DNA from: an uncultured Lachnospiraceae bacterium
GTDB taxonomy: Bacteria > Bacillota > Clostridia > Lachnospirales > Lachnospiraceae
Reading direction: 5' to 3'
Length of the DNA stretch: 46,066 nt
Assembly (NCBI GenBank): GCA_902778165.1
Contig: CACYWQ010000016.1
Coordinates: 1-46,066 of the forward strand
Part shown: piece by piece, positions 6,741 to 42,142 of the stretch
How the letters are laid out: each line of letters opens with the position of its first letter
How positions within the stretch are numbered: the first letter of the stretch is position 1
Made by a program: the position numbers and the translations under genes
The notes under the pieces: generated by a model
The model's input: the letters and a program-made list of their open reading frames with translations, nothing else
The model's database searches: none
What the model was told of the DNA's origin: nothing

Positions 6741-6763
6741 ACAGATTACGGAGGATAATGATT

Positions 6764-7414
6764 ATGAACATAGCAATCGACGGGCCTGCAGGAGCAGGTA
6801 AGAGTACAATAGCCAAGAAGATAGCGAAGAAACTTGGATATATTTATGTCGATACCGGAGCCATGTATCGAGCAATGGCGCTTTACTTCATAAGAATCGG
6901 GGTAAGTGCCGACGATAGTGTCAGCATAAGTAATAAGTGCAATGATGCAGATATCACCATAGAATACAGAAACGGTGAGCAGGTTGTATTGCTTAACGGA
7001 GAAGATGTTACAGGAATGCTTCGTACTGAAGAAGTGGGCAATATGGCATCTGCAACCTCGGTTAACGGCGATGTACGTAAGAAATTGGTTGAATTACAGC
7101 AGAAACTTGCAGCAACTTCGGATGTTGTAATGGATGGCCGAGACATAGGTACGGTGGTGCTGCCCAATGCGGAAGTAAAGGTATATTTAACTGCAAGCAG
7201 CGCAGTCAGAGCCAAGAGAAGATATGACGAGCTTGTTGCAAAGGGGGAGACACCGGATATAAATAAGATCGAAGCCGATATCATAGAGCGTGATGAACGC
7301 GATATGAATCGTGAGATCTCGCCCCTTCGCCAGGCTGATGATGCGACATTGATCGATAGCTCATATATGTCTATCGATGAAGTAGTGGATGCCGTAACAG
7401 GCCTTTTGCCGTAA
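6764..7414 (+). CDS. cmk: Cytidylate kinase
   Basis: Phosphorylates CMP and dCMP to the diphosphates. The 216-residue protein has the P-loop GPAGAGKST near its N-terminus, then DTGAMYRA, and DGRDIGTVV, all typical of bacterial CMP kinases; the C-terminus carries RDERDMNREISPL, which matches the lid region. ATG 6764 is chosen over ATG 6758 because the GGAGG site (6750-6754) is nine bases from the former and only three from the latter. It lies 23 nt after the flavoprotein gene. In many Clostridia cmk precedes ispH and the S1-domain gene, as it does here, although the palindromic element E1 separates them. Confidence 0.95.
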   Translation: MNIAIDGPAGAGKSTIAKKIAKKLGYIYVDTGAMYRAMALYFIRIGVSADDSVSISNKCNDADITIEYRNGEQVVLLNGEDVTGMLRTEEVGNMASATSVNGDVRKKLVELQQKLAATSDVVMDGRDIGTVVLPNAEVKVYLTASSAVRAKRRYDELVAKGETPDINKIEADIIERDERDMNREISPLRQADDATLIDSSYMSIDEVVDAVTGLLP

Positions 7415-7418
7415 ATTA

Positions 7419-7553
7419 ATATCGGATTATAAATGGTCCATCCGGGACGCTCTCGCTTCGGTTAAAACGCAGCGGTACATAAAGCGGCTGAAATACGCCG
7501 CTTAAGTGCCGGCGTTTTAAACGCCCCGGAGTGGATCATTTATTACCCGATAT
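7419..7553 (+). repeat. Palindromic intergenic element E1 (core shared with E2 at 41985-42126)
   Basis: A 135-bp imperfect inverted repeat fills most of the cmk-ispH gap. The outer arms are ATATCGG..ATAAATG..TCCA..CCGGG and the matching CCCGGAGTGGATCATTTAT..CCCGATAT segments, given here in pieces. Inside are GTTAAAACGC against GCGTTTTAAAC, and a small hairpin AAGCGGC / GCCGCTT. Core blocks ACGCTC, ACGCAGCGGT (7467-7476), ATACGCCGC (7493-7501), TAAG and CCGGCGTT (7509-7516) recur in the same order, on the other strand, in E2. The outer stems differ between the copies yet each is self-complementary. It could be a structured RNA segment of the cmk-ispH transcript, a REP/MITE-like mobile repeat, or both. 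No coding potential is seen. Confidence 0.85.
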
Positions 7554-7577
7554 ATGAATTAACAGGAGAATGCTTAT

Positions 7578-8426
7578 ATGCAGACAGAACTTGCTGAACA
7601 TGCCGGATTCTGCTTCGGAGTGGATAAGGCAGTAGAGATAGTTCATGAAGAGATTAAGAAGAACAAAGATGTGCCGATATATACTTATGGCCCAATCATA
7701 CACAATGAACAGGTTGTAGCAGATCTTGAATCAAAAGGCGTAAGGGCACTGGAAGATGACGATATAACAAAGGTTCCTCCCGGAGTGATGATCCTGCGCA
7801 GTCACGGTGTATCACGTCAGACAGAGGATAAACTAAGAGCAGCCGGGTTTACCATAGTCGACGCAACATGCCCCTTCGTTAAAAGAATTCACAGGACTGT
7901 TGATAAAGAATCTGTCACGGGTCATGTGATCATTGTCGGGGATCCGGATCATCCGGAAGTAACGGGAATAACGGGATGGTGCAACGAACAGCCGTATATC
8001 ATAAGCTCGTTATCTGATGCGGATAAAATCCCTTATCCGAAGGATGAGAGAATTACAATTGTCGCACAGACGACATTTAATTACAATAAATTTCAAGAAA
8101 TAGTTGATTATATAGACAAAAAAGGGTATTATATTAATGTTGTGAATACTATATGCAATGCGACTGAGGAGAGACAGGGAGCCGCAGCGAGACTGGCGGA
8201 AAGAGCGGATTGCATGATAGTGATAGGGGGAGCGCACAGCTCAAATTCGCGGAAATTATACGAGATCTGTAAGGAGAGATGTGACGCCACCTATTTTATA
8301 CAGACACTGGATGACTTGCATTTAGAACTACCTAAATCTGTTCGACTGGTGGGTATTACAGCAGGGGCTTCGACCCCAAATAAAATTATCGAGGAGGTTC
8401 AAAATTATGTCAGAAATGAGTTTTGA
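7578..8426 (+). CDS. ispH: 4-hydroxy-3-methylbut-2-enyl diphosphate reductase
   Basis: Last step of the MEP isoprenoid pathway, reducing HMBPP to IPP and DMAPP with an iron-sulfur cluster. The 282-residue protein has the three cluster cysteines at Cys12 (AGFCFGV), Cys98 (DATCPFV) and Cys193 (NTICNAT), the conserved histidines at 42 (IIHN), 76 (RSHGV) and 125 (PDHPEV), and the diphosphate-binding SSNS at 221-224. AGGAG lies nine bases before the ATG. Its end overlaps the S1-domain gene by 20 bp in another frame. In many Clostridia the two are one fused protein; here they are separate and probably translationally coupled. Element E1 lies just upstream. Confidence 0.95.
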   Translation: MQTELAEHAGFCFGVDKAVEIVHEEIKKNKDVPIYTYGPIIHNEQVVADLESKGVRALEDDDITKVPPGVMILRSHGVSRQTEDKLRAAGFTIVDATCPFVKRIHRTVDKESVTGHVIIVGDPDHPEVTGITGWCNEQPYIISSLSDADKIPYPKDERITIVAQTTFNYNKFQEIVDYIDKKGYYINVVNTICNATEERQGAAARLAERADCMIVIGGAHSSNSRKLYEICKERCDATYFIQTLDDLHLELPKSVRLVGITAGASTPNKIIEEVQNYVRNEF

Positions 8427-41979: not shown

Positions 41980-41984
41980 TAAAC

Positions 41985-42126
41985 AAAATGGCACCAAGAT
42001 ATATTGCATAAGTGGGCAATACGGAACGCCGGTGCTTAGGCGGCGTATCTTAGACGCCTTACGCACCGCTGCGTGGAGTCCTTAGCGCGAGCGTGCCCAC
42101 GTTGTAATATATCTTGGTGTCATTTT
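41985..42126 (-). repeat. Palindromic intergenic element E2 (inverted copy of the E1 core)
   Basis: A 142-bp imperfect palindrome fills the leuS-sortase gap. Outer arms: AAAATGGCACCAAGATATAT on the left and ATATATCTTGGTGTCATTTT on the right, then GTGGGCA / TGCCCAC inside. Read on the minus strand, the core has ACGCTC, ACGCAGCGGT (42065-42074), ATACGCCGC (42040-42048), TAAG and CCGGCGTT (42025-42032) in the same order as E1. Outer stems differ from E1 in most positions yet still pair. Both copies share an AAATG start and CATTT end. The right arm ends in a run of T on the plus strand, so it could also terminate leuS. Confidence 0.85.
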
Positions 42127-42142
42127 TGTATAAGATAACTAT

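What the first reader, a model, noticed from the sequence alone, without database searches (positions are those of the whole stretch)
7419..7553. E1: palindromic element with a conserved core and swapped outer stems
The cmk-ispH gap is almost wholly a 135-bp nested palindrome. Its core blocks (ACGCTC, ACGCAGCGGT, ATACGCCGC, TAAG, CCGGCGTT) recur in order in E2, while the outer arms are mostly different in sequence but remain self-complementary in each copy. Conserved core plus covarying stems is the mark of selection on structure. It may be an unnamed structured RNA or cruciform element spread through this genome.
Basis: partly seen in the sequence, partly recalled or inferred. Interest (0 to 1): 0.75.

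Follow-up and report, generated by a model that had tools for sequence, protein, structure and literature searches.

The report
Mobile nested DNA palindrome, conserved core
E1 is one of nine scattered copies of a small repeated DNA hairpin element found across one family of gut bacteria, with a fixed folded centre and outer arms that differ from copy to copy yet still match each other; it looks like mobile DNA rather than a regulatory RNA.

Summary
E1 (7419-7553) is a strong nested palindrome (fold z -8.1); E2 (about 41983-42129) shares its core on the opposite strand. The own genome has 9 copies. The core occurs in 11 of 20 genus genomes and, in a stricter order-wide sample, in 12 of 22 same-family genomes and none of the other 174. 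Rfam has no match.

RNA is not supported. Copies show no strand preference relative to genes (44 against 42). Core helices covary strongly but hold G.U in 15 of 2185 cells, against 42 of 499 in tRNAs. In recently multiplied copies the core sits in a unit with terminal inverted repeats and 8-bp duplications (9 of 12). Inverted close pairs all face one way (15 of 15; 4 more are same-strand), REPIN-like, but no core adjoins a Y1 transposase.

Best reading: an apparently undescribed Lachnospiraceae family of non-autonomous mobile DNA, conserved as folded DNA with sequence-free arms. How arms stay paired is unsettled; the mobilising enzyme is unknown. A near-invariant GNRA loop (176 of 188) is the main evidence for RNA.

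The parts
7419..7553 (-). Element E1, whole nested palindrome; the strand carrying the GNRA loop is the minus strand
   Evidence: CM match 7441-7530 minus, 95.8 bits
7419..7440 (.). E1 outer arm, left; sequence unlike that of the other own-genome copies
   Evidence: pair I1
7532..7553 (.). E1 outer arm, right; complement of the left arm
   Evidence: pair I1
7448..7457 (-). E1 small hairpin P4, reads AGC-GAGA-GCG on the minus strand (GNRA loop)
   Evidence: read; loop conservation
7464..7518 (-). E1 inner hairpin P2/P3 with conserved two-base bulge and internal loop
7412..7419 (.). Possible target duplication, left (TAAATTAA; overlaps the cmk stop codon); tentative
   Evidence: read by eye; 7 of 8 bases match the right copy; not tested against chance
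7555..7562 (.). Possible target duplication, right (TGAATTAA); tentative
   Evidence: read by eye
41983..42129 (+). Element E2 (ends by eye), between leuS and a sortase-domain gene
   Evidence: CM match 42012-42100 plus, 92.7 bits
42026..42074 (+). E2 inner hairpin P2/P3
42084..42093 (+). E2 small hairpin P4, AGC-GCGA-GCG
6758..7414 (+). cmk (cytidylate kinase), left neighbour of E1
   Evidence: PF02224 E 4.5e-75
7578..8426 (+). ispH (LytB), right neighbour of E1
   Evidence: PF02401 E 1.3e-97

Best explanation
E1 and E2 are copies of a Lachnospiraceae-specific family of small (about 135-250 bp) non-autonomous mobile DNA elements. Shown: many scattered, mostly intergenic copies; recent multiplication in one genome with terminal inverted repeats and target duplications; no strand preference relative to genes; a conserved asymmetric core (inner hairpin P2/P3 with a two-base bulge and internal loop, plus a small GNRA hairpin P4) closed by P1 and by long arms that differ between copies but stay complementary. 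Inferred: the core is read as folded DNA (single-stranded hairpin or cruciform) by an enzyme acting in trans, not identified; the arms need only pair, so that the structure forms. Inferred and weaker: copying of one arm from the other (template switching at replication) helps keep the arms paired while their sequence changes.
For: Spread: 9 own copies; 11 of 20 genus genomes including the own, 50 copies in G012; 12 of 22 genomes listed as same family, own included, and none of the other 174 sampled in the order (E 1e-8 or better, stricter filters, 164 matchless genomes not listed). E1 is an insertion or a lineage-specific presence: 12 of 12 relatives whose cmk-ispH gap I read lack it (9, 3; 5 further ispH hits were not read on the right side or were cut). 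Mobility: 9 of 12 G012 units with both ends recognised have 8-bp flanking repeats with at most one mismatch, against 0 of 132 cross-pairings. Structure: 538 and 384 cells changed on both sides, 0 of 500 shuffles as high, slid partners far lower. DNA rather than RNA: 44:42; G.U 15 of 2185 against 42 of 499 in tRNAs. Geometry: among close pairs (gap under 600 bp) [-,+] 15, [+,-] 0, same strand 4. Arm copying: among 31 copy pairs with cores 98-100% identical, 54 arm positions changed on both sides and pair, 38 on one side; L343/L350 have 97-98% identical flank blocks but a 77% identical core, with 5 shared pairs changed on both sides and 1 on one side.
Against: P4 is GNRA in 176 of 188 sequences, never with T second, an RNA-like rule (GNRA-type loops are also stable in DNA, recalled). 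One P1 pair is often T.G (17 of 71, 15 of 110 cells), and the six outer P1 pairs hold G.U 40 and A.C 23 of 1101. Arm mismatches lean to G.U: 202 against 161 (nominal p 0.04, copies not independent); one-sided arm changes 54 against 35 over the three bins. No mobilising enzyme was found. Duplications were scored only in G012; E1's 7-of-8 flank match may be chance. Against arm copying: at the 11 G024/G081 sites the scored arm positions show 4 both-sided and 9 one-sided changes, and seven of those sites have no both-sided change at all; the wholesale differences at the others are unaligned and so unscored. Ectopic gene conversion or re-insertion could explain them.
Confidence: 0.65

Rival explanations
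1. A structured RNA (small RNA or cis-acting RNA) encoded by the GNRA strand, carried as many paralogues, its long stem free in sequence.
For: GNRA loop in 176 of 188; strong covariation; slight G.U excess in arm mismatches; in L048/L100 the three one-sided changes scored are all G.U (scoring more positions, gave one G.U, one A.C, one other).
Against: No Rfam match; G.U 0.7% in P2b-P4 against 8.4% in tRNAs; no strand bias relative to genes; a frequent C.A at one core pair on the GNRA strand (26 cells).
Confidence: 0.17
2. A REP/REPIN (BIME) system: single-stranded hairpins moved by a domesticated Y1 transposase (RAYT / TnpA_REP).
For: Inverted close pairs all [-,+]; intergenic, strand-neutral; Y1 proteins with open frames of 261-298 aa, RAYT-like by length (recalled), occur in some genomes.
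Against: In the genus Y1 passes the cut-off in 5 of 11 genomes with cores and 4 of 9 without; none in G000, G012, G015, G016, G019 or G161, G047, G092, several of them incomplete; no core in any of the 26 Y1 loci (22, 4); G012 units have terminal repeats and 8-bp duplications, unlike Y1 transposition (recalled).
Confidence: 0.07
3. The core is a nested parasite that inserts into the tips of pre-existing palindromes (other MITEs, hairpins), so the arms belong to the target.
For: Core sits inside units with different terminal repeats; core-less or core-deleted palindromes with perfect 8-bp repeats occur in G012 (L165, L166, L170, L171); the G081 counterpart of the L340 site holds a short GGGCG/CGCCC palindrome.
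Against: Arms are shared among recent G012 copies, so they travel with the core there; the G081 counterpart of the L345 site holds no palindrome; core-less G012 forms can be slippage deletions between AATATATT repeats flanking the core (by eye).
Confidence: 0.2
4. Ordinary bidirectional terminators or mRNA-stabilising hairpins kept at gene ends.
For: Mostly intergenic, slight excess between convergent genes (18 of 117 against 23 of 222 background gaps).
Against: An asymmetric conserved core is not needed for that; recent multiplication with target duplications. T-tracts were not tested.
Confidence: 0.05

Closest known systems
Bacterial MITEs (Correia/NEMIS, ERIC, RUP)
   Same: Small non-coding repeats that form stem-loops, with terminal inverted repeats and target duplications in a recently multiplied lineage. 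RUP has IS630-like ends at TA (passage in PMC2229807); the CGAAAC type here may be similar.
   Different: Here the centre is conserved and the arms are free, and the same core sits within units with at least two different terminal repeats.
REPINs / BIMEs (PMC3116915, PMC8266576)
   Same: Inverted hairpin pairs of fixed orientation; REPIN spacers also show compensatory changes (passages).
   Different: Elements of about 135 nt or more rather than REPs of 20-50 nt; no linked or associated Y1 transposase.
Quasipalindrome template-switch mutation (PMC7202029, PMC8604942; starts of abstracts in the listing only)
   Same: Arms of an inverted repeat made alike by copying; would give changes on both sides at once.
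   Different: Here only proposed as the process that keeps the arms of a mobile family paired; the sister-species scores do not show it by themselves.

Membership tests
Bacterial MITE | Terminal inverted repeats and target-site duplication | tested here: met
   G012 units: 9 of 12 with 8-bp duplication, control 0 of 132. Not scored for the window's own genome, where only E1 shows a tentative 7-of-8 match.
Bacterial MITE | Multiple dispersed, mostly intergenic copies without coding capacity | tested here: met
   9 own copies; of 187 collected copies 117 lie between and 19 inside crude ORF calls, 51 not placed; coding capacity not tested formally
Bacterial MITE | A parent transposon with matching ends | tested here: inconclusive
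   End search in G012 and 20 fetched stretches showed short or truncated units only; not every hit was fetched and the genome is 85% complete
REP/REPIN (RAYT-mobilised) | Y1 transposase (PF01797) in the genome, usually beside the repeats | tested here: not met
   5 of 11 genus genomes with cores, 4 of 9 without; none in G161, G047, G092; no core in 26 of 26 Y1 loci
REP/REPIN (RAYT-mobilised) | Inverted pairs in a fixed orientation | tested here: met
   [-,+] 15, [+,-] 0, same strand 4
REP/REPIN (RAYT-mobilised) | Conserved GTAG-like tetranucleotide 5' of the hairpin | not tested
   No systematic test; none noticed by eye (output was cut)
Rfam structured RNA | Match to a curated family | tested here: not met
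   0 matches for the window; two sub-threshold matches for E1
Structured RNA (general) | Covariation including G.U wobble on one strand | tested here: inconclusive
   Covariation yes; G.U 15 of 2185 in P2b-P4 against 42 of 499 in tRNAs; one P1 pair often T.G and a slight G.U lean in arms
Structured RNA (general) | Expression from a defined strand | not testable with these tools
   No RNA-seq data available

The most novel reading that the evidence does not exclude
A new kind of mobile DNA module: a conserved folded-DNA core, recognised by shape by an unidentified recombinase or transposase, which has passed between unrelated transposon backbones in Lachnospiraceae and whose arms are remade by copying one arm from the other, so that structure is inherited while sequence is not.
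Probability: 0.18. Interest if true: 0.8.

Novelty: new variant of a known kind. Interest (0 to 1): 0.55.

Why it matters
It offers a natural set of copies, including orthologous sites in sister species, in which a DNA structure persists while its sequence turns over. That makes two questions testable: whether template switching, conversion or slow compensatory mutation explains 'covariation' in long palindromes, and whether covariation alone should be read as evidence of RNA. It also warns RNA-discovery pipelines that strong covariation with few G.U pairs and no strand bias can mark mobile DNA.

Tried and rejected
Structured RNA: considered first; weakened by strand neutrality, lack of wobble in the core and lack of Rfam matches, but not excluded.

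Gene-linked system: clustering 2800 ORFs of 80 aa or more from 121 loci gave no linked family; the largest cluster touched 13 loci at a median 2.2 kb. Three [-,+] pairs 1-1.3 kb apart (two orthologous) enclose a DUF2334/polysaccharide-deacetylase gene or an aminotransferase gene, not a transposase.

RAYT: tested and not met.

Arms taken from the target site: not general (arms shared among G012 copies; no palindrome in the G081 counterpart of L345).

Pairs made of two fixed subtypes (like Y and Z REPs): a regex typing gave A+A 5, A+B 4, A+untyped 4 of 13 pairs, so not established.

Literature: six searches. None of the papers listed is, by title or abstract start, about such a Lachnospiraceae element; several lists were capped (12 of 1,215, 12 of 378, 20 of 32, 8 of 62) and the library holds open-licence papers only. 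Passages read: PMC2864571, PMC3116915, PMC8266576, PMC2229807; others from listings only.

Limits: ORF calls are crude and 51 of 187 copies were not placed (short stretch, repeat of another copy, or no neighbour). ARAGORN admits only G.U as a non-standard pair, so tRNA A.C is no control. Copies are not independent; pairs share members and many are from G012. CM alignments lean towards the structure given; A2 and A3 share two elements. In one search, 107 of 125 pattern hits entered (the rest lacked a recognisable P4 or were repeats), with 80 genus copies. In one search 12 distinct units were scored out of 40 fetched G012 stretches. Ends of CGAAAC type: 16 of 124 pattern hits in L185-L304; TAGG precedes 11 of 16 left and 8 of 16 right ends, one right end being cut.

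Changed after checking: confidence lowered from 0.7 to 0.65 and the novel case from 0.2 to 0.18, because a recount gives 4 both-sided and 9 one-sided changes at the 11 sister-species sites; pair counts, Y1 counts and G.U counts were redone.

Full report
WHAT IS THERE. E1 fills most of the cmk-ispH gap (genes by Pfam). Its outer arms are 7419-7440 and 7532-7553, its inner arms 7459-7470 and 7512-7523. It folds far better than shuffles, as RNA (z -8.08) or as DNA (z -7.36). E2 lies at about 41983-42129 between leuS and a sortase-domain gene, in the opposite orientation.

ANATOMY. On the strand with the GNRA loop (minus for E1, plus for E2) the order is: 5' arm; P1; a long inner hairpin P2/P3 with a two-base bulge (CT) and an internal TTA/TTAT loop; a linker; a small hairpin P4 (AGC-GNRA-GCG); P1'; 3' arm. 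Seven copies made model R1. The P4 loop is GNRA in 176 of 188 distinct aligned sequences (73 in A2, 115 in A3, two elements in both), the second base A 118, C 38, G 20, T 0.

SPREAD. R1 finds 9 copies in the own genome and copies in 11 of 20 genus genomes including the own. In a sample of 196 genomes of the order, with stricter filters and E 1e-8 or better, 12 have it, all 12 among the 22 listed as same family; the 164 unlisted matchless genomes come after these in the kinship order of the list. A few MAGs are named Muribaculum, Muribaculaceae or Gastranaerophilales; I suspect binning errors but did not test it. One viral contig matched. Rfam has nothing.

IT MOVES. Twelve of twelve relatives whose cmk-ispH gap I read lack E1 (9, 3), out of 17 relatives with an ispH hit. 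In G012 the core lies within a unit ending in GTTACTGTTCACA; 9 of 12 scored units have 8-bp flanking repeats with at most one mismatch, against 0 of 132 cross-pairings. In other genera 16 of 124 pattern hits end in CGAAAC/GTTTCG, with TAGG before 11 of 16 left and 8 of 16 right ends. That resembles IS630-type ends (recalled; RUP passage in PMC2229807). So the same core sits in units with different ends.

DNA OR RNA. Of 187 collected copies, 117 could be placed between crude ORF calls: 44 opposite to and 42 along with codirectional neighbours, 18 convergent, 13 divergent; 19 fell inside ORF calls. Covariation is strong: the covariation score is reached by 0 of 500 shuffles in either alignment; the number of further pair types is reached by 16 and 6 of 500. 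Yet G.U occupies 15 of 2185 cells in P2b, P3 and P4, and A.C 30, of which 26 at one pair. In 23 tRNAs from fetched loci G.U is 42 of 499. Against this stand the GNRA rule, one P1 pair often T.G (17 of 71 and 15 of 110), and isolated arm mismatches of G.U 202, A.C 161 and 378 others.

PAIRS. Close pairs (gap under 600 bp) are [-,+] in 12 of 12 cases (100 loci; one match is cut), in 1 of 1 (21 further loci), and in 2 of 6, where the other 4 are same-strand; [+,-] was not seen. The pairs in L189 and L199 are orthologous. This is like REPINs (PMC3116915 passage). But in the genus Y1 transposases pass the cut-off in 5 of 11 genomes with cores and 4 of 9 without, and none of 26 Y1 loci holds a core.

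ARMS. Among copy pairs with cores 98-100% identical (31 pairs, sharing members), arm positions were 650 same, 54 changed on both sides and pairing, 38 one-sided, with 17 G.U and 8 A.C states among the latter. Two related species, G024 and G081, share 11 scored sites. At seven the cores differ at 0 to 3 places, no both-sided arm change was scored and 6 one-sided changes were. L344/L352 has 3 both-sided changes, L343/L350 one, with 3 one-sided between them. At L326/L329 and L349/L353 the script could score no arm position: one search shows the innermost arm alike and the outer arms different, each copy still pairing. L343/L350 have 97-98% identical flank blocks (110-380 bp away) but 20 core differences; on predicted folds 41 shared pairs are unchanged, 5 changed on both sides, 1 on one side. 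Four more orthologous pairs give 11 both-sided and 5 one-sided changes. Over all 15: 326 same, 15 both sides, 14 one-sided, 259 unaligned. So arm change is uneven, and the data do not choose between copying of one arm, ectopic conversion, re-insertion and compensation.

EMPTY SITES. Three G024 sites were sought in five relatives. At L345 G081 lacks 183 bp and has no palindrome; at L340 it has 13 bp in place of 177, with a short GGGCG/CGCCC palindrome; at L347 a remnant with P4 and the 3' arm remains. The first favours insertion of the whole unit, though deletion is not excluded; the last is a loss.

VERDICT. A family of mobile, non-autonomous palindromic DNA, not met in the six literature searches made here (capped lists). 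Its conservation is the reverse of a usual MITE: fixed centre, free arms. The moving enzyme and the reason for the fixed core are unknown.

Noticed in passing
L165, L166, L167, L170, L171 (G012): Core-less or core-deleted short forms of the G012 unit; L165, L166, L170 and L171 have perfect 8-bp flanking repeats. They may be slippage deletions or forms that move without the core.
   Followed up: partly
L107, L108 (G019): Two copies share a long altered 5' part, with a second GCGGGTAG start before the core, as if recombined (by eye).
   Followed up: no
L213 1922-2028: Copy whose small GNRA hairpin is extended by a further hairpin insert (by eye).
   Followed up: no
L395, L396, L317, L313, L314, L397, L398: Y1-domain proteins with open frames of 261-298 aa, RAYT-like by length (recalled), without any core in the fetched flanks.
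   Followed up: partly
L186, L194, L211, L213, L239: MAGs named Gastranaerophilales, Muribaculaceae or Muribaculum (NALB series) carry the element; possibly misbinned contigs, not tested.
   Followed up: no
own genome C11:37736-37802 (L051): A copy that has lost the tip of the inner hairpin but keeps arms and P4.
   Followed up: no
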